Part shown: positions 17,642 to 48,202 of the stretch, piece by piece
How positions within the stretch are numbered: the first letter of the stretch is position 1
Layout: each line of letters begins with the position of its first letter
Assembly (NCBI GenBank): GCA_001466705.2
Contig: LATX02000254.1
Span: forward strand, 122,736-186,735
Length of the DNA stretch: 64,000 bases
Reading direction: 5' to 3'
DNA from: Moniliophthora roreri
Taxonomy: Eukaryota; Basidiomycota; Agaricomycetes; Agaricales; Marasmiaceae
The notes under the pieces: generated by a model
What the model was told of the DNA's origin: nothing
Database searches by the model: none
Seen by the model: the letters and a program-made list of their open reading frames with translations, nothing else
Made by a program: the position numbers and the translations under genes

Positions 17642-20600
17642 CTAAGCAAATGCACTCAATACCTCTCTAACCTTCTCCCCTTCCTCCTCTTCCTCGAGAA
17701 ACACCACCTCTACCTGCCCTTCACTTACACTCTCCTTAATCCGCCTCAACATCTTCTCGTTCCTGCTAAGCACCGCCGCCGTATCCGAGTCCTTGCATTG
17801 AACCAGTACAGGCAAAATTGCGTTCCCCCGACTAACATTGTTGGGCAATACGAGGAAACTATCTGTGTTTGGTATAATTCGGAGGGCGTAACGTTCTCCC
17901 AGACTATACCAGTACCTGTAAGTACAACGCAACGCGGCGCAAAGTAAAAGGGATCTTGCCTGTCAAAGATATGATTCTGCGCCTCCGCAGCTTGCCTCCT
18001 CGCCCATCCGTCTGAACCATCAAACTTCCATGCTACCGACGCTTCGCCATTCTCGATAACATATGACGAGGGTGTACGTTCTGTGAACTGTCGGGTATTA
18101 AGAAACATATCCATCAGCACACCTCTGCCTACAAAAACCCAGAAACACACACGTACATAATTCAAGATTTCCAAACACGCATTCCTCCACTTTCTCAATC
18201 CCTCTTCATCGGCTGCTGGTCCTGAAAACGTTTGTTCCCATTCCTCTGCACCGGCTTTTCGAACAAAGCAACCGTTCTCAGCTACGATACCCACGTTCGC
18301 GGGTAATGATGAAAGGGCTTTGAAGGAGCTCCTCGGATGACCTGAGAGAATGTACACCTCTACCCCGTTTCCTACCAGCTGGTGAAGCAGATCGATGGCA
18401 GCGTTTTCGTCGGGGGCAGTGGGTGATGAAGGTACCAGGCCACCTTCCCAGTCTACGAAAACCATTCTCGGTTTCTTTTTAGGGTTGAAGGTAGTCAGGG
18501 AACCGAAACCTGAGGTATTGGAGACGGTGGAAGGAGATGAACCTGAGCGGAGACACCGGTTCAGGAATCCGATAACGAACGTCTGTGCAGTTTGTTTCTC
18601 GACGGCTTTGTTGAGGTCTCTCCAGCGTTCACTGTAAGAAGTACCATGTCAGCTAGGCCGAAAGAGAGAGGAGAGAACAGGGACAAAGACACAAGAAAGA
18701 GCCAGCGACGACAAAGAAAGATAGAACAAGACAAGAGAAAGCAGCGAATGAAGCGCAGACTCACGACGCCTCCTCTCTTCCCATAATCAGCGCCTTCCAG
18801 ATCGCCTCACTCGTCCGTCGGATGTCCCAAGGGTTGATTGGCAGACATGAGCGGAAGCCCGCGGCTGAATACGTGTATGAGCCTGTGAACTGTATATTTC
18901 ACCTCATCAGCCCTCTTGATTCCTTCACGAAGGAATTATAGCGTACCTCCGACAAGATCAATACACCTTCTCTCCCTGCTTGTTCCTCACACTTGCCCTC
19001 CTGCATGACGACAAATTCGTGTGTACGGAGCGCCATACCCTCACGGAGAGAGGTGACGAGGAATGCATCTGCTACGGTTAGCAGGGCGAGGTATTGGCTG
19101 AACGAGACGTCCTGCGTGTGGAGGAATACGACGGGCTGTCGTGGGAGGTTCGGGATTCATCATTCGTGTTCGATATTGGGTATTCAATGTCAATGTTGCC
19201 GTTCATTCGATCGCAGTCGTGGTTCGTAACGTATAGTTCACGTAGTTGTGGGATTTCGCGTTCGTCGAGTTGTGGGTACCGGTTTGAAGTTCGGATATTT
19301 GAGGGAGCAGCAGAAGTAATAAGAACAAAAGTCATCAGCCCAAACTCCAACCCAAAACAGACAAACGTACCTGATACGTCAATGTACTAAACCTCGAATT
19401 AATATGCGACACCGTCGTCAGAATCTCATCTTGGATTCCAGGTTCGGCGGTTTCGGATGACGAGGAAGATGGAAGGGCGATTTGGATCAAGACGACCTGA
19501 GAATGAGAACGGGTTAGCCTTCGGGATTGGCGTCGCATAAAAAGAGAGAAAGAGAAAGGCACGGCAGATGCCAGTGCCAACTAAGCAAAAAAGAAAACGC
19601 GCACCTTACCAACCCACTCACTCCTCTCCTCCAAAAACCTCTCAAATGCCCGCATCTTCTGCCTTACGCCTTGTATTTCGTCCAACTTGTCTCGGCCGAC
19701 GATCAATTTCATATCCTTATACCTGTCGCTCTCGTTAGCCTCTTGTGTGGGTAGAGGTATGGGAAGGAAAGGAGACGTACCGTTGATGAAGTAAATCAAC
19801 CCATTCATCCACTTCTTTTTCGTTTTTACGGGATTTGAGCTGGTTCACGTCGATACCTATCAGTGGGTTTAGGTGTTAGCTAGCCTCGAAGAGACGGGAG
19901 ACGAGAGAAAGAAAGATAACGTGTAACGTGGCGAGCGAGCGCGAGCGTTAATGGATATGGGTAAGCCCCGGTAGATAAACAAACGAACGGAAGCCAAGAA
20001 AGGGAGAAAGAGACGTAGACGTACCCATAGGAAATACCCCAACATCCACAAACCTTCCTTTCCCGTGTTCACCTGTAGTTCCAGCGATAGATGCGGCGGA
20101 TTTGGCGGAGCTCAGTTCTTCTTCTTGCGGAGTTTGGGCTCTCTTTTCGTCTTCTTGTCCGTTTTCCGTAGCGGTGGGGACGGAGGAAGAGAGCTGGATA
20201 CCTCGTGGCAGCGCTTCGACAGACAAGATCCGAGAACACGTTTGCCGGAAATGCCTGGCGTAGTTGGCTGTTTGGAAGCCTACGAGGTCAGCTGCGGAGG
20301 CGTCAGCATCATAGTCGTGATTGGGATAGAGATAGAAAGGCAGTAAAGGGCACGTACCACCCAACATCCCCCTCAATAACGCACTCCTCACGCTTAAACA
20401 CCTGAAAATCTCGCTACTCGGGAATGCGACATGTAAGAAGAAACCAATCTTGATATTCTCCATTTCTCCAAGGAGATTCCGCAGTAAGAGCGGTAACAGC
20501 ATGAGGTGGTAGTCGTTCACCCATATGACATCGCCTGGCTTGACGATAGCCGCAATCTTCTGAGCAAAGAGGCGGTTGACGGCCAGATACTGTTTGTATG

Positions 20601-21740
20601 ACGCCGATTCGTAGAACAATTTCGTTCTCGGGGCGTCTGGTACGGCGTAGTGTAGTGCAGGCCATAGGACCTACTCACCGTTAGCATCCGCGTTGGGGGA
20701 AAAAAGGAAGAGTGAGAGCGTACTTTGTGGCAGAATTCATCATAACACCCCTCAAAATCATCATCGTTCACCCAAACAGCCTCTGAACCCTCAGCTCTAA
20801 GCTTTTCTTCGACGTTAGCCTGCAAGGTATCGCTGAACCCGTCGGTTGAAGCGCCTAATGTGCCAACCCATAATCGGTCCAATGACGGTGTAGAATCAAG
20901 GGCGTTTTTGAGGCCGCCGTTACAGTGGGGATTGGATTCGAAATAGAACTTTTCGTCTTCGTATTCGTCTTCTTTAGCTCTAGTGGTCTCAGCATCGGAA
21001 TCATGATGTTCGGAATCATGGGGTAAAGAAGATGGTGATCGGTGGGCTTTGGACTTTGAGCTGGATTTAGATTGAGATCTCGGCCGTGTACGCGACGTGT
21101 TTCGTTGTAACCTGCGGGAATAAGAGCGGTGCATGTGCACTTCTGATGCATTTGGTGCTGGGGTTTTCCGCTCGCGAGTTTCTTGGGGGTACAATTGTTT
21201 GGAATCGGAATCAGATTTGGGTTGGTATTGTTTTGGAACGTTGAGTGTAGACGTCGCCCGACTGAACCCAGGCATCGAGCTAGCATTCATACCACTCAGA
21301 CCACCTGTAACCCCGACCCCTCGATTGATCCCAGGCGTCCTAGCTGCTGGTGGTGCCGTTCCTGTACTCGTCTGACGATCTCGCATGTCCTCTACAATAG
21401 ATTTGAGAGGTGTAGGCTTGCTCAATGCCAATCCAGGTGTGGACGCAGCGAGGTTTGGATTTGGATTAAGAAGAGAAGGTGTTCCGGGTGTAAGGGGTGT
21501 TTGAATAGTTGTTGATGAATGTGCGGGACGAGGATGGGATACAATGGGTGGTTTGGAGATGTCTGTTTGGAGTTTGAGAGTGACTTGGTCGCAGATATTA
21601 TTGGACGGTGTCACTGGTTCCGATTCGGATATTTCGGGTGAAGAAGAGTAGTAGTCATAGTCATCGGGTGAACCGAGGATGACAGTATGTGGGAGGAAGA
21701 GTGAGGCGATAATTATTCGATTTGAGGGATGATTGGCCAT
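17642..21740 (-). CDS. trehalose-synthase-complex regulatory subunit (Tps3/Tsl1-like)
   Basis: Long protein (roughly 900 aa) with a low-complexity Ser/Thr/Pro-rich N-terminal third, a GT20 trehalose-6-phosphate-synthase-like domain and a C-terminal trehalose-phosphatase-like domain. Start MANHPSNRIIIASLFLP at 21740. Early exons are 20724-21740, 20358-20670 and 20025-20291, and the C-terminal exons include 18157-18631, 17960-18087 and 17642-17903. The synthase part has VIWVNDYHLMLLPLL, IGFFLHVAFPSSEIFR and ADLVGFQTANYARHF. In the phosphatase part the HAD motif expected as DYDGT reads DWEGG, so the second acid and the Thr are changed. By analogy with yeast Tps3/Tsl1 I infer a regulatory rather than catalytic role. 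The intron at 17904-17959 uses a GC donor. Exon structure at about 19,080-19,400 is unclear. Confidence 0.85.
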
Positions 21741-22461: not shown

Positions 22462-24496
22462 TTATACTCTGGCAGAACTGGGTAGAGAAGCAGATGAACT
22501 ATATGGTGTTTTGAATGAGTTTTTCAAGAAAAATAGAAGGTATGTATTGAGACATGGAAAGTTGAATAAATAGAGAGTGAAATTGTTGAATATCATGGTG
22601 GTTTGTAAATGGCTTTGGATCACAAGAGATAGCTTTATAGATAGAAAAAATGACACCAGACAATGTGGGGAGGCTGTAGTATCCATATGGCAGAGAATGT
22701 CTATGGAAAGAAATTGAAGGCCATTTTTCCTAGCAAGACCCCAAACAATGACAGCTAGTTGAATTTGTACATCAGGATGGTTATAATAATAAACCTATGA
22801 TGATATATACCTTGCAGAGTATGGCTGGTTTCACATTGTAATATTTCAAGATAGGGATTGAGAACATTGTCCATGTTCTGCATTCTGCTTGGCCTGCACC
22901 AAGAGTCAGAACAAGCAAAGAATCATTAGCAATAGGAGTCAGAATCAAGTCCAGGACAGTCAGCATGGATCTGTTGTGACACACTGTGGAAACATGCACA
23001 AGCTGAGAGTCAGAATCAAGTCCAGGACAGTCGGCATGGATCTGCTGTGACACTCTGTGTGGAAACACGCACTGGCTGAGAGTCAGAATCAAGTCCAGGA
23101 CAGTCAGCATGGATCTGTTGTGACACTCTGTGGAAACACACACACTCTGAGAGTCAGAATCAAGTCCAGGACAGTCAGCATGGATCTGTTGTGACACTCT
23201 GTGGAAACACACACCTTCTGATAGTTAGAATCAATTCCAGTACAGTCAGTGGGGCTCTATTGTCACACTCTGTAGGAGCACTCAACTGCCTATGCAGAAA
23301 AAGCTGTTAAGCTCTATTTAAAGCATATAGAATTTTGCAATACCTGCTTTATGTGAATATTTTGCAAGATATTCATGTTCTTGCCTTGCATGTTGTTACT
23401 GCTGACTTCAATATTGTTTTGGTCCTCTTCAAATGCCTGAAGTCTTCCAACACAATTTGGGTTACAACTGCAAGAACTTTAGCAAAGAATACTTCTAATC
23501 ACATTCACTAGAACCCACTAATCTCTTGCCACATTCAGTCCTGGCTGTTAGTTACTATTCCAAGTCTTGCAAACTGGGCATTCATAGCCAACAATGTGGC
23601 TCTTCTCCTGCCAGAGGATGACACTCATCACAATCTTTGTCCCTGGCCCCACTCTTGCCCACTGTTCCTTCTCACTCCCAAGCATGACAACTTGTCTGCC
23701 CTCATCAATAGACAGACTATACTAACCTTGTTGCACAAATTCAAGTAGCATGCCACTAATTTTCTTGTCTCCATCTTCTCTTGGGTATTGGAATAACAAC
23801 TTCAGAAAATCTCCAATAGACTAGAATGAATTATGTCAGTTCTATAAGTGTAAGATCTAGTGTTTAAATATTCACATACCTTTTGGTTTGGTTTAATTTC
23901 AGGAGGAAATAGTATGCTTTGACCTGTTGGATCAATAATGATAACTGTGATTCCCATTGTAAGTTCACAAACCTCTCACAGTCAGTATAACACTTACTAG
24001 TGCTGAGGCCATATTATTGAAGATGCTCCCTATAATTTTAACTCTTGATGTACGTGCAAACATTGTTGGGCCATAGAAATGGATTTCATTCATTGTGTTA
24101 TTTGGGTCCTGAGAGACAAAAGTAAGGGTTGTTGAGAGTTTCTTGTAGTAATAAAATATGAACATACCTCAGGTTGTGGGTGTCTTCCAGTCTTTCCAGT
24201 CTTAGAAGTTAAAGGTTGTCCTCTATAATGTCTCTGGCCAGCTGGCAATCTAAGATCAAAGTGAGTTTTTAGTAGAGCTAAAAATGACTATAAATACACA
24301 TAGGGTGGGTGAGCCCTGTGACAAATGGCAAGAGCCTTGCCTTTGGAACCCTTGGAGGGCAATCTAATGAAAAAGTAAGTTTTTAGCAGTGCCATAAATG
24401 AGTATAAATGTACACATATGGGTGTGCCCTGCCACGAATAGCAAGGCCCTTGCCTTTGGAACCCTTGGACTTCTCTATCAGTACTTTGGGGCTCAT
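22462..24496 (-). pseudogene. microexon gene, short copy (five one-codon exons)
   Basis: Minus-strand multi-exon gene, homologous to 41,011-48,202. Exon 1 starts at 24496 (MSPKVLIEKSKGSKGKG). An exon at 23998-24108 has the agaricomycete motif IIGSIFNNM. The next contains IIIDPTGQSILFPPEI, then a domain with LSIDEGRQV, PGTKIVMSVI and YECPVCKTWN, then CNPNCVGRLQAFEE ending HIKQ. Next come five 3-nt exons (GCA, AAG, AGT, CCA, CTT) between introns of about 68-70 nt. The next exon is NMDNVLNPYLEILQ, and a final exon (AVIVWGLARKNGLQ onward) runs to TAA at 22462. TAG at 23722-23724 and TAA at 23548-23550 interrupt the domain exon, so this copy is probably dead. Family function unknown. Confidence 0.55.
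23000..23289 (-). repeat. five-triplet intron/microexon array
   Basis: Plus-strand triplets AAG 23000-23002, TGG 23073-23075, ACT 23144-23146, CTT 23215-23217 and TGC 23287-23289 are 71-73 nt apart. Each sits between a minus-strand YAG acceptor and a GTG- or GTT-type donor (GTGCAT, GTGCGT, GTGTGT, GTTGAG). Each intron-like unit carries a GCTGAC or CTTAAC branch-type motif. Confidence 0.75.
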
Positions 24497-24499
24497 GTT

Positions 24500-27400
24500 T
24501 TGAATTTAGGATGAAGAGTGTCTTGACAGCAGTGGTGCAGAAATTGGGGGTTGGGAACAAGGTTGAGAGAGATTTGACGACAGGATAGGGAACGCCTGTT
24601 GAATGGGGCCACGAGTTGGCCTTGTGTTTGCCTTGTGGTGGTGGACCTTATTTGCAAAGTTGCCATTCCATCTGTCACATCAAATCCAAACATTGCTTTT
24701 AGACTGAGAACATGTCAATAATTTGTCCAGATTGTATTGATTGGAATGGCCTATTTCATGCCAGTGATTGTACATTCAGAGTTTGGGGACACAAACCAGC
24801 ATGTAGCATGTTGAACAGATGACTTACGGCTAGTTCTATTGTAATAGACATGATAGCCTAAAAGGAAACAAGCAGCATAGCCCGAGCGGGACGGCAACGA
24901 TCAGGGTCTCTCAGGATCTCTGATCTGCTCTGAGCCCTCTAGTCAAATGAGCCAAGCAGTGTGCAGATATCTTGATTTTAACGAGCTGTTGGGCAGCAAG
25001 GGAACCGAACCATCGAGTTTTGATGGCGTCAACTCTCTTTTACCTAACCGTCACCACGAGATCTGTCGCTGGCTCATCAGCATTTCTTTTCATGTTCTCA
25101 GCCGTACAGTATCCGGTCCAGAACGACGTCGGAGCAGGTTGCCTGATTGTAAGTATCCGCCTTCCACCGTTCCTTGAAACTAACCATTTTTTTTTCTCGA
25201 AGCTTATCACCACGATGACCCCCAGATTCTTTTATCACGTTCAAGGACCAAAGCGAAACCTAAAGCGAGAACAGACCCACAGCACCGGCCGTTGTTACTG
25301 GAGCCACTTGTCTGAGGAGTTGGGCCTTTGTCCCGGTATGTTTATTCGGATTTGGCTATCACGCTAACATTAACACTAATTATTTTCCTTTCTACGTAGC
25401 CAGCTCCGTCTCTCATCCCAGAAAGACAACTATCACACTCAAATCGAACGTGTTGGAGTGTGTTGGTTGGTCATTGGAACAACGTAAATATCTCGTTTCT
25501 GCATTTTAGTCCTCGAAACCGACAATATTTCTTTTCTTCCAGATATCCAGCTTATCAGAAGGTTCACCTTTAAGTCAAGACACTGAAGAGTAATCGGATT
25601 GAATAGCCATGGCAACGAAGCAGAGAGGGAATAAAGAGAACGAGGTATCGGTAGAAGTGTGCTACATGTTATCCTTTCTCCCTTGAAGTTCACCACCACG
25701 ATGATTACAGATTTGTGTATCACGCTCAAGAACCAAAACGCAAACGCCTACATGTACCTTCCCCCACATCCAAATCACCTCTCCGAGTCACTCCTTCGCT
25801 GAAACCATAACCGCGCTTTTACTCGTTCACATGGCTGTTCATTCCGAGACCGGGAGGTCGGACTGGTACCACCTATCCTGGCTGTAATGCAGTCCCTCCT
25901 ACACCTTTCGCCCGATTGTGCATCTCGGGTCGCGTTCAAAGAAGGATCCCGCAATTAGAATCACGAACCTCCAGTTCTCGCCAAGATGGGAACACAGTGA
26001 GGGCGACTGGATAATAGCAAATCACTTTTTCGGAAGACAGCGAAGGAAATAGCTTTGGCAGTGTTCTTTGCACCTTTCTCAAGGCCTAGGGCCCTACCTC
26101 GTGCACTCGCTTTTGGAGGTCTCGAGAGTCGTTTTCGCAGGGAAGAGCGAGGGGTGATCCTGTAATTATTTTGGACGTAGACCATGGAACAGGAGCGGGA
26201 ATGGCGCTTGGAGAAGCATATGCTTGGTTTCTGGTGTCGAGCAGGGTCAATGCAGCTCGCTAGCGAGTTTTCGCCCGACTCGTCTGACCGAACCCATCGA
26301 TATAGCAGGAATAACACTTGAAGCTTGGGCGGTTGATTGTCCCTGGCTGCAGTCAAGGTTCGGCGGTGATATGGGAGCAACGTAAGAAAAGGGTATGTCA
26401 TGTCTTCATATCAGTTCTATTTCATCTAATGATAATTATTCCCAGATACAGCTCACAGTATGAAACGAAACCAGCACATCCTTCCCTGCCGCGCGTCTCG
26501 CTTTCACGGTCCACGTCGAAATCCAACATCATGCTATGAAGCAAGTACGAACCGAGCGCCCTAGGGTCGCCCCATCCCCTTGAATAACAGGTGGTATGAT
26601 ACACCATCAGGTGAGGACTTACAACCCTTTTCTTCCGGAACTTGCGAATTGATCATCTTTCCGCAGCAATAACGCCATGATCTGTTTCGTACCAGACAAA
26701 GTGGCTTACGATGCATGAAGTGGCACACATGAACCCACGAGGATAACATCAAGGTTTCAACGTGTCTCTTGGCACCTTTTCGAGCTCGAGCAATCTCGCA
26801 CATGTAGTATCACGGTGGTTGGACCAGGTCAGGATGGAGGAAGAACAACGGACAGCGGACAAGGCTTGGGCTAGGGCATCAAGGGAGCGATGTGAACCGA
26901 ACAGCACTTTTTTCATTTCATCCGACGTTGCTGGATCCTTGCTACCCTGACAGCTGTGCATCCTTTAATTACCGTTCCTATCATACATCCGTAGGTCTCT
27001 AATAGTATCGCGCTCGCAATGTCAAGATCCGTATGATGAAGAAAGTATAGTTCTGATATCAGAATCTCCATAAACGCTGGCTCAACTGGTAGCAGTACCG
27101 CGTAAACGAGAAATCTAGATATTACTCGAAGCACCGGTTCCGAGAGTTTAGACATAGGTAGTACTCGTTTAGCCTTCGAGGAAGCTCCACCACCTGCGCT
27201 CCTCACTGCAGCTGCTTTGATCTTCGACAAGGTTTCCTTCGCTTCCCCAACGGAGGTAATGGTGCCAATAAGACTGCTTATCCTGAACCCGGCCCTGTAC
27301 CCTCGATACCTTCGCCGGAGGCAACTTCCAATTCGTTTGCGTGCTCGTGTATCGTTCTCGCCTTCCAACGTGGATAATGGCTCCAAACTTGACATTGCTG

Positions 27401-40600: not shown

Positions 40601-41010
40601 TAATTATAAAGGCCTGATCATCTGGTAATAGCAGAAATATGAAAGGTTAAACAAATAGAGGGTGAAAATGTTGAACATAGTAGTAGTTCATTGTAAATAG
40701 AAGAAAGGCATATAAGGTAATATGCAGAAGCTACAGTACCCATATAGCATACAATGTCTATAGAGAGAAATTGAAGGTTGTACTGTCTAATAGCAAATCT
40801 CCAAATATAAACAGCTAGTTAAATTTGTACATTAGAATAATTATAAACAATAAGATATAAAATGTTATACACCTTGCAGAATGCATCTAGTTTGATGCTG
40901 TGAGATTCCCAGACAGGAATTGAGACCCCTGCCTATGTTTTTCTGTGGCCTACACCAAGAGTCAGAATAGTGAGTAGAGCTTTACTATTATAGACTCTAG
41001 AGATACCTAC
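40600..41010 (-). other. decayed 3' exons of the long microexon gene
   Basis: Aligns with the last two exons and introns of the short copy (22,462-22,990), but the reading frames are broken. The penultimate exon lacks the short copy's in-frame reading, and the final exon meets a stop early (about FNFSL then TAG). If the TAA triplet at 41011-41013 is used as a terminal codon, this region would be untranslated. Confidence 0.5.
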
Positions 41011-44000
41011 TTACTAGAAGTTAGAATTAAGCTCAAGATAGTTAGTAAGAGTCTATTGTCATATACTGCAGAGACACTCACTTGCTGAGGGTTAGAATAA
41101 AGTCAAAGATAGTTAATGGGGCTCTATTGTCACAAATTGTAGTAACACCTACATGCTAAAAGTCAGATTCAAGTCCAGAACAGTTAGTAGAGCTTTGTTG
41201 TCACACATTGCAGGAATACTCACTTGCTAAAGGTCATAAACAATTCCAGGACATTTAGAAGGGCTCTATTGTCACATATTGTGGAAAACTTACAAACTGA
41301 AAATCAGAATCAAGTTTAAAATAGTCAGTAGCTCTATTGTTATATATTGTAAAAGCACTCACAAGCTAGAAGTCAGAATCAATTTCAGAACATAAGTAGG
41401 GCTCTATTTGTCACACATAGTGAGAATACTTACTTGCTGCAAGTAAGAAGTAAGTCCAGTACAGTCAGAAGGGCTCTATTATTATAGATTGTAGGAATGC
41501 TCACTTGCTGAGAGACAGAATCAGGTCCAGTGCAGTTAGTAGAGCTCTATTGCTACAACATTGAGAGAATGCTCACAAACTGAAAGTCAGAATTAGGTTT
41601 AGAATAGTCAGTAGAGCTCTATTGACACAGATTATAGAAAAACTTACTTGCTAAGAGTTGGAATCAAGTTCAAAGCAGTCCAGTCAATAGAGCTCTATTG
41701 ACACAGATTGCAGAAATACTTACTGCCTAAGATTGAAAATCAAGTTTAGACCAGTTGGTAGGTTTCCATTACTACAGACTGTAAGAATACTTACTGCCTG
41801 AAAGCCAGAACCAAGTCCAGAACAGTTAGTTGAAATCTATTATCACAGATTGTAGAAACACTTACAAACTAAAAGTTGAAGTTAAGTTCAGGAAAGTCAG
41901 TAGAGCTTCATTGTTACAGATTGAAGGAGCACCTACAAGCTAGAAGTCAAAATCAAGTCCAGAACAGTCAGAAGGGTGCTATTGCCACATATTGTAGGAA
42001 TGCTCACTGTCTGAAAGTCAGAATAAAGTCCAGAACAGTTGGTCAGGCTCTATTGTTGCATATTGTAAGAATGCTTACAAACTGAAAGTCAGAAGGAAGT
42101 CCAGAACAGTCAGTTGGCTTTATTGCTACAGACTGCAGGAATACTCACTTGCTAAAAGTTATAAAAAAAGTCCAGCATAGTCAGTAGAACTCTATTGTTA
42201 TGGATTGTGAAAATACTTACTGCCTGAGAGACAGTCAAGTTCAGAACAGTCAGTAGAGCTCTATTATCACACATTGTGAGAATACTCACATGCTAAGAGT
42301 CAGAATAAAGAGCAGTCAGCATGGCTCCATTGTCACACATTGTAGAAATACTTACAATCTAGAAGTTAGATCCAGTAGATTTAGTAAAGCTCTATTGCTA
42401 CAGATTATAAGAAGACTCACTTGCTGAGAATTGGAATCATGTTCAGAATAGTCAGTAGAGTTCAATTGTCACAAGTTGTAGTAATACTTACTGCCTTAAA
42501 GTTGAAATCAGGTTCAGGACAGTCAGCAGAGTTCTACCACCATATAAGAATGCTCACATGCTAAGAGTAAGAATTAAGGACAGTTAGTGTGCCTCTATTG
42601 TTACATATTGTAGAAACACTTACAACCTAAAAATCAGAACCAGCACTTTCAGTAAAGTTCTATTGCTACAGATTGCAGAAATACTCACTTGCTGAACATT
42701 AGAATTATATTCAGAGTAGTTAGTAGAGTTCCATTGTTACAAATTGTAAGATTACTCACTGCCTAAAAGTCAGAAGTAATTCCAGCACAGTTGGTATAGC
42801 TCCATTATCATAGATTATAGGAATACTTACAACCTAAGAATCAAGTCCAGCACAGTTAGTAGAGCTCTGTCACACATTGTAGGAATACTCACATGCTATG
42901 AGTTATAATCAAGTTTAAAACAGTCAGTGGCTTCATTATCACACATTATAGAAATACTAACAGGCTAAGTCAGAATCAAGTCCAGAACAGTTAGTAGAGC
43001 TTTATTGTCACATAGTATGAGAATACTTACTTGCTAGAAGTCAGAACCAAGTTCAGAACAGTTAGCAGGGCTCTATTATTATAAATTGTAGGAATACTTA
43101 CTGCCTGAAAGTTAAAATTAAGTTCAGAATAGTTAGTAGAGCTTTATTTTTACAAATTGTAACACTCACTTGCTAAGGGTCAGAGTCAAGTTTAAAAGAG
43201 TCAGTAGGGCGCTATAGTCACATATTGTAGAAATACATACTGCCTGAAAGTTAGAATCAAGCCCAATACAGTCAGTAAAGCTCTATTGTCATGCATTATA
43301 GAAACACTTGCTGCCTAAGAGTTAGAATCAAGTTTAAAACAATCAGAAGAGCACTATTATTATGCATTGTGAAAACACTCACTACCTGAGAGTCAGAATC
43401 AAGCCCAGCACAATCAGTAGAGCTCTACTGTCACAAATTGCAAGAATACTCACATGCTGAGAGTCAGAATCAAGTCCAGCCCAGTCAGTAGGACTCTATT
43501 GTTACAGATTATAGAAACACTTACTGCCTGAGAGTCAGAATCAAGTCAAGCATAGTTAGTAAGGCTCTACTGTCACACATTGTTGGAATACTGACAAGCT
43601 AAGAATCAGAATAAAGCACAGTCAGAGGCACTCCATTATTACAGACTGTGGAAACACTCACATGCTAAGTGTTAGAAATAAATTCAGCATAATTAGTAGA
43701 GTTCTGTTGCCACAGATTGTAGAAACACTTACTGCCTAAGCATTAGAATCAAGTTCAAGACAGTTACTAGAGCCCTATATTCATATATTTTGAGACCACT
43801 CACTGCCTAAGAGCCAGAACAAAGTGCAGAAAATTCAGTAGGATTCTGTTGTCACATATTGTAGAAACACTCACTGCCTAAAAGTCAGAATCAAGTTCAG
43901 AACAGTCAGTAGAGATCTATTGTTTCATATCATCAGAAAACTTACTTGCTAGAAGTCATAAAGATAAAGAAGTTCAGCAAGTCAGTAGGACTACATCATC

Positions 44001-47000
44001 ACAGATTGTAGAAAAACTCACTGCCTATGAATTAGAATAGAGCCCAGAACAGTTAGTAAGGCTCCATTATCACATATTGTGGGAACACTTACTGTCTGAA
44101 AGTTAGAATAAAGTCCAGCACAGTCAGTAAGGCTCTATTATCACAATTGTGGAAATACTCACAATCTAGAAGTCAGAATTAAGTCCAGCACAGTTATTAA
44201 AGCTCTACTGCCACAGATTGTAGGAACACCTACTGCCTGAGAGTCAGAATCAAGCCCAGCACAATCAGCAGAGCTTTTCTGTTACTATTTGTGAGAACAC
44301 TCACCTCCTAAGGGTTGGAATCAAGTCCAGAACAGTTAGTAGTACTCTACTGTGACACTTAGTAGAAATACTTACAAACTAAGCATAAGTAAGTTCAGAA
44401 TGGTCAGTAGGGCTCTATTGACATACTTTATAGGAGCACTCACTGTCTAAAAGTCAGAACCAAGTCAAAGATAGTTAGTAGGCTCCATAGTGAGAGATTG
44501 TAGAAACACTTACTGGCTAAGGATTAGAATTAAGTCCAGCTCAGTCAGTAGAGCTTTATTGTCACAAATTGAGAGAACACTCACTTGCTGGGGGTCAGAA
44601 TCAAGTACAGGATAGTGAGTAGAGGTCTATTGTTGCAGATTGTAAGACTACTTACTGCCTGAAAGTCAAAATCAAATTCAGAACAGTTAGTAGAGCTCTA
44701 TTGTTATATACTATGGAAATAGTTACTTGCTGAGAGTTAGAAGTGAGTTCAGAATAGCCAGTAGAGCTTTACTGTTACAGATTGTAAGACTACTCACTTC
44801 CTGAAAGTTGGAATTAAGTCCAGCATAGTTAGTGAAGCTCCATTGCCACAGATTGTGAAAACACTCACTACCTAAGAGTCAGGGTTAAGCCCAGCAGTCA
44901 GTGGAGTTCTATTATTAGAAATTATAAGAATACTCACTACCTAATAGTTAGAATCAAGTTCAATACAGTTAGTAAGCTCCATTGTCATAACTTATAGGAA
45001 TACTCACATGCTAAGGGCCACAATCAAGTCCAGAGCAGTTAGTAGAGCTCTTTTATCACACATTATGGGAGCACTTACTTGCTGAAAGTCAGAAGTGATT
45101 CCAGAACAATTAGTAGAGCTCTATTGTCACAGATTGTGAGACTACTTACAAACTAAGAGTCAGAATCAAGTCCATAACAGTCAGTGGGGCTCTGCAGTTA
45201 TAGATATGTGAATGCTAACATGCTAATAGTCAGAACCAAGTCCAGAATAGTCAGAAGAGCTCCATAGTCATACATTGCAGAAACACTCACTGCCTAAGAG
45301 TTAGAATTATGTACAAGACAATCAGTAGAGCTCCATTGTTATATATTGTAAGAATACTTACTGCCTGAAAGTCAGAATTGATTCCAGCACAGTTAGTAGG
45401 GCTCTATTGTCACAGATTGTAAGACTACCCACTGCCTGAGAGTTAGAATCAAGTTTAAAACAGTTAGTGAGACTCTATTAGAGATTATAGGAACACTTAC
45501 TTGCTAAATGTCACAAATGAATCCAGAACAGTCAGTAGGGTTATATTACCACAGATTATAGCAATACTTACTGCCTAGAAATCAAAATCAAGTCCAGTAC
45601 AGTTAGTAGAACTCTATTGTCACACATTGTAGGAACACTTACTGCCTAAAAGTCAAAATCATGTCCAGAACAGTCAGTGGAGCTCTACACATTGTGAGAA
45701 TACTTACATGCTAAGAGTTAGAATTAAGTTAAAACAATTAGTAGAGTTCTCTTGTTACAAATTATAGAGATACTCACTGTCTAGAAGTCAGAAGCAAGTA
45801 CAGTATAGTCAGTAGGATTCTATTATCACAGACTATAGAAACTGACTTGCTGAGAGTCAGAAGCAAGTTCAAGACAGTTAGTAGAGCTCTATTATTACAG
45901 ATTGTAGAGACACTCACAACCTAAGAGTTGGAATTAGGTCCAGAACAGTTAGTAGAGCTTCATTGGCACATGTTGTGGGAATATTTACAAGCTGAGAGCC
46001 AGAGTCAGGTCTAGCAAAATCAGTAGAGCTCTATTGCCACAGATTGTAAGAATGCTTACTGCCTAGAAGTTGGAATCAAGTCCAGCACAGTCAATAGGAC
46101 TTGACTGTCACATATTGTAGGATTACTTACAAGCTGGAAGTCAGAATCAAGTCCAGCACAGTCAGTAGAGGTCTATTGTGACAGATTATGAGAACACTTA
46201 CTGGCTGAGGATTAGAATCAAGTCCAGCTCAGTCAGTAACAATTTGTTGTTATAAATTGCAGGAACACTTACATGCTGAGAATTAGAAGCAAATCCAGCA
46301 CTGTCAGTAGAGTTCTATTGTCACAGATTATGCAACACTCACTTGCTAAAAGTTGAAATCAAGTTCAGAACAGTCAGTAGGGCTCTACTATTACACATTT
46401 CTGGAATACTCACATGCTAACAGTCAGGAGCAAGTTCAGGTTAGTTATTGAGGCTCTATTGTTACAGATTATAAGAACACTCACTGCCTAAGAGTCAGAA
46501 CAAAGCTCAGAATGGTCAGTAGGGTTCAATTGTAACATATTGTGAAAATACTCACCTCCTGAGAGTTAGAGTCAGATTCAGCACAGTCAGTAAGCTCTGT
46601 TGTTACAGATTGTGGGAACACTTACAAGCTGGGAGTCAGAATCAAGTCCATTACAATCAGTAGAGCTCTATTGCTACAGATTGTGGGAACACTTACTGGC
46701 TGAGAGTCAGGGATCAACTTCAGAACAGTTAGTGGAGCTTCATTGTCACACATTGTAAGAATACTTACTTGCTATAAATCATAAACAAGTTTAGCATAGT
46801 GAATGAGACTCTATTGTCACATATCATGGAAACACTCACTGGCTGAAAGTGGAAATAATGTCCAGCAGTCAGTAGGGCTCTATTATCACAGGTTGTGGGA
46901 CCACTCACTGCCTAAAGGTCAGAACCAAATCCAGCACAGTCAGTAAGGCTCCATTGTCACATATTATAGAAACACCTACTTGCTAAGAGTCAGAACCAAG

Positions 47001-47050
47001 ACCAGGACAGTCAGTAGTAGTTTATCTGCAATTGATATACACTCAACTGT
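41011..47050 (-). repeat. array of about 86 intron-like repeats separated by 3-nt exons
   Basis: By eye, 87 triplets occur about 70 bp apart. Each repeat, read on the minus strand, runs GTRAGT donor, about 30 nt, TACTAAC or TACTGAC, about 27 nt, CTCAG or CTTAG, then exactly three nucleotides before the next donor. Triplet counts (coding strand): GCA 23, CAA 19, CAT 11, TTT 6, CTT 6, ACA 5, CCA 4, GTT 3, GTA 3, ATT 2, GAG 2, GAA 1, CCT 1, and one TAA as the last. A few donors deviate: GC donor near 43,311, GTTAGT near 42,951, GTCAGT near 43,590. The first triplet (ACA, 47048-47050) follows a 56-nt intron after exon 6. Confidence 0.85.
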
Positions 47051-48202
47051 CTAGTTGTTGAAAAAGTAGTCAAGACCTGTTTTAGCAATATACAACTTTG
47101 CATTACCTGCATTATGTGAAGATTTCGCAATATATTTATATTTCTACCATTGTTTTGCCTGTCATTGCTGCTGGCTCCACTATGATCTTGGGCCCCCTCC
47201 TCAAATGCTTGAAACCTCCCCAGGCATTCTGGATTACAACTGTGACAATCTTAGTAAGGAAAAACCACTGATCACAATAACCAGAACCTACCAATCCCCT
47301 GCCATACTTAATTCTAGTCCCTGACTACCATTCCAGGTCTGACAAATGGGACATTCATAACCAACAAAGTCTCCCCTCTTCTTCTGCTGTAGGATGACAC
47401 TCATCACAATCTTTGTCCCAGGCACTACTCTTGCCCATTGTTCCTCCCCACTCCCAAGCATGGTAACTTGTCTACCCTCATCAATAGACAGGCTATACTG
47501 ACCTTCTCTGACAAATTCAAGTAATATGTCACTGACTGCCTCCTTTCGGTGGTGGAGTAACAGCTCCAGATATCCCCTAACAGACTGAACCAAATTATAG
47601 GATTCATTATTATGAATGTCATGTAAAGTATTGAACTATCTACATACCTCTAACCCTACTGGTATTTCAGCAGGAAACAAAAAGCTTCGACCTGCTGCAT
47701 CAATAATAGTGAGTGCAGGAGCAACAGGTGGCCCTGAGGTTCAAACATTGAAGCATGAGACTTTGAAGCCATGATAATAGAAACCCAACTCACCAGTGAT
47801 GACTTGGAGGTTGCCCCATACATTATTGAACTGTCCACCCATGATAGTGAATCCTGAATTCCCTTGAAACATTGCTAAGGCATGGTGCTGGTGTAGTAAA
47901 TTGTCAGATTTATTGGGGTCCTGGGAGGTAGGAGCAGAGCAGGTTATTGGGAGGGTTATTGGGAGGGTTGCTTGCTTTGGGTAGGGTGTCGGATTAATTC
48001 AAGGCCAACATACCTCAGGCCATGAACTTAATGTATTCAATGGGGTAGACATTGGTGAGGCAGAAAACCTGGTGAAAAAGGTTAGTTTTAGGCAGTAATG
48101 CAAGTGACTAAGAACGCACACATCGGGGAGAGGTACCTTGCGAAGAACAGCAATGACTCTGCCCTTGAGACTCTTGAAGTGATCTGCGAGTTTGAAACCC
48201 AT
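41011..48202 (-). CDS. microexon gene, long copy (about 86 one-codon exons)
   Basis: Minus-strand gene. Exon 1 is about 48137-48202 (MGFKLADHFKSLKGRVIA). Exon 3, 47794-47920, has FTIMGGQFNNVWGN, and exon 4, 47648-47733, has ALTIIDAAGRSFLFPAEI. Exon 5, 47292-47584, carries a ubiquitin-like-looking domain with LSIDEGRQVTML, VVPGTKIVMSVI and YECPICQTWN. Exon 6, 47107-47239, has CCNPECLGRFQAFEE and ends LHIMQ in phase 0. Exons 3-6 join in frame with GT-AG introns. From 47,050 downward the coding strand alternates intron units and single codons to TAA at 41011-41013. Exons 1 and 2 do not join in frame with canonical sites by my reading. The ubiquitin-like/zinc-ribbon resemblance comes from remembered agaricomycete proteins; function unknown. 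Confidence 0.5.

What the first reader, a model, noticed from the sequence alone, without database searches (positions are those of the whole stretch)
41011..47050. About 86 tandem intron-like repeats separated by single-codon exons
Seen directly: on the minus strand every repeat of about 70 bp carries a complete set of spliceosomal signals (GTRAGT, TACTRAC, YAG), and exactly three nucleotides separate each acceptor from the next donor. The upstream coding exon (47107-47239) ends in phase 0, so every triplet would be a whole codon. If spliced in full, about 86 residues would be encoded by about 86 exons over 6 kb. I know of no described gene with such an array. Alternatives: the array is skipped as one long intron, spliced recursively or combinatorially to give variable linkers, or is an untranscribed minisatellite born from an intron.
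Basis: partly seen in the sequence, partly recalled or inferred. Interest (0 to 1): 0.96.

Follow-up and report, generated by a model that had tools for sequence, protein, structure and literature searches.

The report
Gene with introns between every codon
In the cacao fungus Moniliophthora roreri one gene runs into 86 look-alike intron-like repeats with exactly three bases between each and the next, and those triplets are predicted to be spliced together, codon by codon, into an 86-residue protein tail; 14 sister gene copies carry such arrays or their remnants, mostly with other triplets, which would be a gene layout that my searches found described nowhere.

Summary
On the minus strand 86 repeats (59-73 bp) separate 87 triplets at 47050-41011. 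Independently scanned donor and acceptor profiles lie 3 nt apart in 417 of 425 pairs over 14 genomic regions, 75 of 75 in this array. Six upstream exons plus the triplets give one open frame of 334 codons; its stop, TAA, is the last triplet. The host is Moniliophthora roreri by protein matches and contig lengths. The gene is one of 15 array-bearing copies of a ULD_2/zinc-ribbon family. Arrays spell different codon strings between related introns. Of 485 triplets 4 are stops, about 17 expected; 3 of the 4 stand last or next to last. Joined, one sister array reads FANAWDAVPSIARYAAKLGRLPPPPAPL, 21 of 28 residues as in an uninterrupted glycosyltransferase gene, third bases mostly changed. A solitary copy of the intron interrupts a dehydrogenase gene in frame. 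I read these as likely spliceosomal introns around single-codon exons that encode a fast-changing tail; recombination inside arrays would keep the frame. No RNA was examined, so splicing is inferred. Nine literature searches listed no precedent.

The parts
48120..48202 (-). exon 1 of the predicted gene (ATG at 48202)
   Evidence: annotated proteins P0001 and P0004 begin alike; splice borders checked
48014..48068 (-). exon 2
47794..47887 (-). exon 3 (MFQGNSGFTIMGGQFNNV region)
47648..47733 (-). exon 4, start of the ULD_2 domain
   Evidence: Pfam PF22893 over residues 33-121 of the query, E 1e-6
47292..47584 (-). exon 5, rest of ULD_2 and first CxxC (YECPIC)
   Evidence: 'zinc ribbon' is my reading of the cysteine pattern, not a database hit
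47107..47239 (-). exon 6, second cysteine pair (CCNPECLGRFQAFEE...NLHIMQ), ends in phase 0
   Evidence: conserved among the paralogues aligned
47051..47106 (-). intron between exon 6 and the first single-codon exon
   Evidence: GTAATG...CTAG, 56 nt
41011..47050 (-). array: 87 predicted single-codon exons (ACA first, TAA last) separated by 86 related repeats of 59-73 nt
41011..41013 (-). last triplet of the array, TAA, the only in-frame stop of the joined frame
40691..40967 (-). stretch downstream of the array that resembles the one downstream of the second array (71% over 277 nt); probably 3' exons and introns
22936..23273 (-). second, short array (4.7 repeats by TRF; triplets AAG AGT CCA CTT parsed) behind a paralogue with stops in its domain

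Best explanation
The array is likely a run of 86 spliceosomal introns that separates 87 single-codon exons, predicted to be removed one after another so that the triplets join in phase 0 into an 86-residue C-terminal tail, ended by TAA, of a ubiquitin-like-domain protein. Shown by sequence: the exact 3-nt spacing, the open frame, the splice signals, the sister arrays with other codon strings, the terminal stops, the resemblance of one joined string to a real protein segment, the solitary intron copy in another gene, and the abrupt breakpoints between arrays. Inferred: that the introns are spliced in the cell, in what order and how completely, that the tail is made, and what it does. Because each exon is one whole codon, any donor joined to any later acceptor, and any unequal crossover between two introns, would keep the frame. 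I therefore infer that the layout lets the tail change length and sequence quickly without frameshifts, by recombination and possibly by exon skipping.
For: Spacing of 3 nt in 417 of 425 independently scored pairs and in 485 of 490 junctions of a corrected parse of 21 array segments, whose scoring favours 3 nt. One frame of 248 + 86 codons to a terminal TAA. Four stops in 485 triplets against 16.6-17.7 expected from position-wise composition; 3 of the 4 last or next to last. Internal controls: TGA:TGG 2:16 against NGA:NGG 34:11, p 3e-6; TAR:TAY 2:7 against NAR:NAY 135:61, p 0.007 (units are related, so p values are optimistic). Joined triplets of array C93a resemble part of an uninterrupted 840-residue frame on C1 that has a Glyco_transf_8 domain: genome-wide E 8.3e-5, 37.7 bits, 21 of 28 residues identical over 28 single codons spread across 1.9 kb, with third bases equal in only 7 of the 21; 1000 shuffled orders reach at most 23.9 bits against the same frame and the best hit in 359,000 control residues is 21.6 bits. 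Main array: donor G 100%, T 98%, +5 G 97%, branch A 98%, AG 100%; rest of intron on average 80%, triplet 50%. A solitary 66-nt copy splits a dehydrogenase gene, and without it the frame reads ...SKGLNGSALAVD....
Against: No transcript or peptide was examined. The parse admits only AG acceptors and GT, GC or AT donors, so its GT/AG counts (464 GT, 2 GC, 469 AG of 469) are partly by construction. Single intron positions can be as variable as the triplet (main array: maximum entropy 1.90 against a triplet mean of 1.41). Exceptions: one internal TAG and one AT donor (C115a), two AT donors (C113), 1-nt junctions (C113, C108c, C12), a 5-nt one (C78b), and lost signals or odd introns in C113, C34, C108b, C93b and C111a. 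For the C93a match, my own estimate from the 37.7 bits over six frames is E about 0.04, weaker than the tool's figure; the same motif also resembles a lectin repeat in the PDB at 9 bits per repeat; the C93b tail has no match. Residue order: the helix test gave p 0.013, 0.017 and 0.053 in the three longest arrays, nothing in six shorter ones, and the main array's strongest periodicity is not helical (164 degrees). The frame of the downstream exon is not decisive. No relative outside M. roreri was found. Six of 15 copies have broken domains.
Confidence: 0.8

Rival explanations
1. The array is spliced combinatorially: donors and acceptors pair at random, giving a population of in-frame tails of different length rather than one full tail. 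(Overlaps with the best explanation; it differs in completeness.)
For: Donors and acceptors of the 86 repeats follow one consensus and any pairing keeps the frame. Human UBC is reported to splice stochastically over a tandem array of dual sites (abstract of PMC10809524).
Against: Codon strings with few stops, and stops placed at array ends, suggest that the whole string is read at least sometimes. Short introns would favour nearest neighbours; that point is from general knowledge.
Confidence: 0.35
2. The array is skipped as one long intron, or lies untranslated; the repeats are an intron-derived minisatellite.
For: The annotated proteins returned stop before or at the array or run into repeat sequence; no RNA evidence exists here; several arrays are damaged or cut by insertions.
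Against: Splice signals kept in each unit of the main array; stop depletion and terminal stops; the joined C93a string that resembles a protein; constant 3-nt spacing.
Confidence: 0.1
3. The triplets are random spacers left by a mobile element that inserts head to tail, with no coding role.
For: Intron copies within arrays are about equally distant whatever their spacing, and triplets are not significantly linked to intron sequence in 5 of 7 arrays tested.
Against: The three triplet positions differ strongly in composition (third base C about 1%) and stops are depleted; 15 of 21 array segments sit directly behind the same gene family.
Confidence: 0.04

Closest known systems
Micro-exon genes (MEG) of Schistosoma mansoni
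   Same: Genes with many very short exons and a variable protein (abstract and introduction of PMC10526429).
   Different: MEG exons are given as 3-81 bp (abstract; 6-81 in the introduction) with introns of 0.1-5 kb; here the array exons are 3 nt each, the introns 59-73 nt and related to one another, and the host is a fungus.
Introners / introner-like elements
   Same: Near-identical introns in many positions; one solitary copy in an unrelated gene.
   Different: [quoted passage not shown] here nearly all listed copies lie in tandem behind one gene family, with one codon between copies.
Human UBC tandem dual-specific splice sites
   Same: A tandem array of splice sites in a repeat gene that gives a variable number of units (abstract of PMC10809524).
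   Different: There the units are whole ubiquitin monomers; here the exon is one codon and the repeat is the intron.
Single-nucleotide exon of Fusarium CYP621A
   Same: An ultra-short exon in a fungal gene, with splicing confirmed in public reads (abstract of PMC12940212).
   Different: One such exon in a conserved enzyme, not dozens in a row.
3-bp micro-exon of Drosophila homothorax
   Same: A single-codon exon that is spliced (PMC7392893; listing and start of abstract only).
   Different: A lone, alternatively used micro-exon.

Membership tests
U2-type spliceosomal intron | GT donor, AG acceptor, branch-site motif at a fixed distance | tested here: met
   main array: 85 of 86 GT plus 1 GC, AG throughout the unbroken chain, CTRAY in 71 of 86, 56 of them at 28 nt
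U2-type spliceosomal intron | removed from transcripts | not testable with these tools
   no RNA data held; indirect support from the solitary copy in the dehydrogenase gene
Micro-exon gene (MEG) | many consecutive very short exons | tested here: met
   87 consecutive 3-nt exons predicted; not shown by RNA
Micro-exon gene (MEG) | long introns (0.1-5 kb) | tested here: not met
   array introns are 59-73 nt
Micro-exon gene (MEG) | secreted protein with signal peptide | not tested
   no signal-peptide predictor was run
Introner | near-identical introns at many positions | tested here: met
   290 matches to one 68-nt copy, about 150 of them listed
Introner | dispersal into unrelated genes | tested here: inconclusive
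   one solitary copy (C100) and one two-unit copy (C117) outside the arrays; the list was cut, so others may exist
Introner | target site duplication or terminal inverted repeats | tested here: inconclusive
   none seen by eye at the C100 copy; not tested systematically
ULD_2 (PF22893) proteins | Pfam model above its cut-off | tested here: met
   29.3 bits against 24.5
Non-coding minisatellite | no constraint on triplet content or splice signals | tested here: not met

The most novel reading that the evidence does not exclude
A codon-by-codon split gene family: copies of one short intron came to stand between all codons of the tails of some 15 gene copies, independently of the codons themselves. 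The intron arrays now serve as a recombination platform that rewrites the encoded tail at single-codon resolution without breaking the frame, and one such tail spells a segment of a glycogenin-like protein. It would be a eukaryotic way of making hypervariable protein ends.
Probability: 0.5. Interest if true: 0.97.

Novelty: categorically new. Interest (0 to 1): 0.94.

Why it matters
If spliced, this is a gene of 93 coding exons in which 87 in a row are single codons, far from what is usually thought spliceable. It would test how the spliceosome handles neighbouring introns with almost no exon between them, why gene finders miss such genes, and how introns multiply. It would also offer a way to diversify a protein tail by recombination that cannot shift the frame. 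The codons change while closely related introns stay, so intron gain and protein change can be told apart within one gene family.

Tried and rejected
Tandem duplication of codon plus intron followed by slow drift: not enough as the sole origin, since introns 1.5-3% apart already have codons differing at 0.59-0.64 of sites, near the plateau of 0.68 (122 pairs). At zero intron divergence (64 pairs) the difference is 0.24-0.27, so duplication with codons also occurs. Codon and intron similarity are linked on both sides in 1 of 7 arrays (C93a), on one side in a second (C12, p 0.01), and not significantly in the other five (C115b p 0.058 on one side). Divergence between introns changes little with distance in the 8 arrays examined (a slight rise in C115a, an irregular course in C108b).

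Codon duplication by a 3-bp target-site mechanism: neighbouring identical codons are 62 against a shuffled mean of 45 (sd 6), but the two other longest arrays, WIN_a and C93b, show fewer than shuffled; not adopted.

A comparison of similar introns with and without similar neighbours gave codon differences of 0.50 and 0.59 and did not separate the models. Intronless copies of the joined triplets of WIN_a and C93a were not found in the genome; the tool warns that an empty answer shows nothing. A search for relatives of the C93b tail in the protein collection scored nothing, as no candidate shared three words with it, and none was found in the own genome. Profile searches gave only M. roreri (7 of 7). 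The frame of the last exon was not decisive. Pfam hits of the tails are weak and below cut-off (main tail: DUF5945 E 0.0011, apolipoprotein E 0.0024); NCBIfam gave none.

Literature: nine searches in the held library. Several lists were cut (for example 20 of 9,897 papers), and I judged by titles and starts of abstracts. Subscription papers and preprints are not held.
Full report
What is there. On the minus strand the window carries a gene whose exons 48202-48120, 48068-48014, 47887-47794, 47733-47648, 47584-47292 and 47239-47107 join to 248 codons without a stop. Part of it is annotated in public records as a ubiquitin-like domain protein of Moniliophthora roreri; Pfam gives ULD_2 at 29.3 bits against a cut-off of 24.5. 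After a 56-nt intron the array starts: triplet, repeat, triplet, repeat, for 87 triplets and 86 repeats, ending with TAA at 41013. One junction uses a GC donor and another an AAG acceptor. Joined, the array adds 86 codons and then the stop. The name of the organism rests on protein matches and on equal contig lengths of the own genome and of records with WG66 locus tags.

Chance. Acceptor and donor profiles built on the main array were scanned separately over the window and 13 further regions. Of 425 acceptor/donor pairs at distances of -6 to 40 nt, 417 are at 3 nt; in the window 78 of 78, of which 75 lie in the main array. A full parse, which favours 3 nt in its scoring and admits only AG acceptors and GT, GC or AT donors, gives 485 of 490 junctions at 3 nt in 21 array segments after two corrections by eye and one added triplet. 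The five others are four of 1 nt (one of them an N) and one of 5 nt. Beyond these, units with lost signals or odd introns occur in C113, C34, C108b, C93b and C111a.

A family. DNA searches of the own genome find arrays on contigs C153 (this one and 22.9-23.3 kb of the window), C111, C21, C105, C115, C113, C108 (three), C12, C34, C93 (two) and C78 (two), and a two-unit piece on C117. A protein search finds 17 copies or fragments of the domain; by position, 15 have an array directly behind them, the exceptions being a tandem copy on C34 and a fragment on C111. Those 15 make 15 of the 21 parsed segments; C111b-d, C105b, C115b and C12 have no domain copy directly in front. Nine of the 15 aligned domain regions are free of stops, and 13 of 15 keep a length divisible by three up to the array. 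C115a and C115b are one array split by a 7,056-bp insertion whose ends are direct repeats (373 bp aligned, 98.9% alike); the five bases ACTCT are repeated at its sides.

The triplets behave like codons. Among 485 triplets there are four stops: TAA last in the main array, TGA last in C108b, TGA next to last in C93b, and one internal TAG in the split array C115a. Position-wise composition predicts 16.6 (per array) to 17.7 (pooled) stops. TGG stands where TGA would be expected from the other NGA:NGG ratios (2:16 against 34:11), and TAY where TAR would be (2:7 against 135:61). The units are related by descent, so the p values (3e-6, 0.007) are guides. The arrays spell different strings, for example QAPQPLEAHQ... 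in the window, KPNEPKMTPEMTDE... in C93a, and ...FRWENALLEQLRLFLQQEQPREELRELIARPERELQRFKRRWGL in C93b.

A joined string that resembles a protein. The joined C93a triplets match, at a genome-wide E of 8.3e-5, one place on contig C1 inside an uninterrupted frame of 840 residues. That frame has a Glyco_transf_8 domain at 55.3 bits and looks, from memory, like glycogenin. The array's FANAWDAVPSIARYAAKLGRLPPPPAPL and the gene's FANAWDTVPSIQRYASKLSQPPPPPQPL agree in 21 of 28 residues. In the array these 28 codons lie over C93:330585-332487. Third bases agree in only 7 of the 21 shared residues, so the likeness is in the protein rather than in the DNA. Controls: 1000 shuffled orders of the string reach at most 23.9 bits against this frame, the real one 37.7; the best hit in 359,000 residues of other fetched DNA is 21.6 bits. 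Cautions: a plain estimate from 37.7 bits over all six frames is E about 0.04; the same motif resembles a lectin repeat at 9 bits per copy; of two tails searched genome-wide as protein, C93a matched and C93b did not. I raised the confidence from 0.75 to 0.8 for this.

Residue order. In the three longest arrays the order is more helix-like than shuffled (p 0.013, 0.017, 0.053, uncorrected); six shorter ones show nothing. The main array also shows a strand-like period (p 0.019) and its spectrum peaks at 164 degrees, so this is weak evidence for order, not for a helix.

The repeats behave like introns. In the main array the donor G is 100% conserved, T 98%, position +5 97%, the branch A 98%, and AG 100%, while the rest of the repeat averages 80% and the triplet 50%; C93a gives 90% for the rest and 46% for the triplet, C93b 71% and 48%. 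Some positions outside the known signals are as conserved, and some are as variable as the triplet. A 66-nt copy stands alone in a dehydrogenase-like gene on C100. With it removed, the frame continues ...ASDASKGLNGSALAVDNAWSTI and ends. All 25 PDB matches listed for the spliced C-terminus are by name short-chain dehydrogenases, reductases or related oxidoreductases, with weak E-values of 0.26-0.88. The Pfam stretch that spans the junction belongs to a whole-protein score of 24.2 bits against a cut-off of 27. A diverged relative on C97 is continuous there, with a five-residue gap just past the junction (46% identity).

Introns and codons have separate histories. Pairs of introns only 1.5-3% apart have flanking codons that differ at 0.59-0.64 of sites (122 pairs), close to the plateau of 0.68; identical introns (64 pairs) still differ at 0.24-0.27 (450 of 469 introns used). 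C21 holds five copies identical to the 68-nt query, behind the triplets GTT, CAA, CGA, GTT and TTT. Divergence between introns depends little on their distance in the array, as if the copies in an array came from one source at about one time. Duplication of blocks with their codons also occurs, in C93a above all.

Recombination. C12 and C108c, and C111b, C21 and C105a among themselves, share an identical 3' flank (0 of 897 bases) and the last four to seven exons of the array, with introns identical or nearly so. All earlier triplets compared then differ (8 of 8, 9 of 9, 3 of 3 and 6 of 6), and introns there differ at 2 to 15 bases. C111a and C21 are 1% apart over 900 bases upstream but differ in four of the first five triplets. 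I read this as exchange between arrays within the arrays; rapid change of codons in place is not excluded. Because every exon is one codon, exchange would keep the frame.

Mechanism. I infer stepwise removal of neighbouring introns, since one 3-nt exon can hardly bind the machinery of both neighbours at once (general knowledge). Any skipping would be in frame. Splicing itself, its order and completeness, and the tail's role are untested. The annotated proteins returned stop before or at the array or include pieces of repeats, which is what gene finders with a minimum exon length would do.

Literature. Nine searches of the held library listed no paper on such an array. I read abstracts of PMC10809524 and PMC12940212, the abstract and introduction of PMC10526429, and passages of PMC9860276; PMC7392893 only in a listing. 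Lists were partly cut and reach is limited to open-licence papers.

Noticed in passing
window 22900-24620 (-): A second gene of the same family with stops in its domain and a remnant array of four parsed triplets; it is 95% identical to a copy on C78 over 1.6 kb.
   Followed up: partly
L032 (C1:1988283-1990805): Uninterrupted frame with a Glyco_transf_8 domain (glycogenin-like from memory) that holds a segment resembling the joined triplets of array C93a.
   Followed up: partly
L027 2436-2501 (-), C100:671934-672001: Solitary copy of the array intron inside a dehydrogenase-like gene, in frame.
   Followed up: yes
L014-L015, C115:91136-98191: A 7,056-bp LTR-type element (end repeats 98.9% alike) inserted within one intron of an array, with ACTCT repeated at its sides.
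   Followed up: partly
L028 2524-2658 (+), C117:265023-265157: Two array units with one triplet (AAT) between them, without a domain copy recognised beside them.
   Followed up: no
L013, C105:458.2-460.0 kb region: The array end and 3' flank occur twice in a row, 99.9% identical over 1,752 bp, with an N at the start of the second; a very young duplication or an assembly effect.
   Followed up: no
window 24244-24469: Two tandem copies of a 113-bp unit near the start of the second family gene.
   Followed up: no
window 20500-20760 (-): Frame with the motif VWVNDYHLM, which from memory looks like trehalose-phosphate synthase.
   Followed up: no
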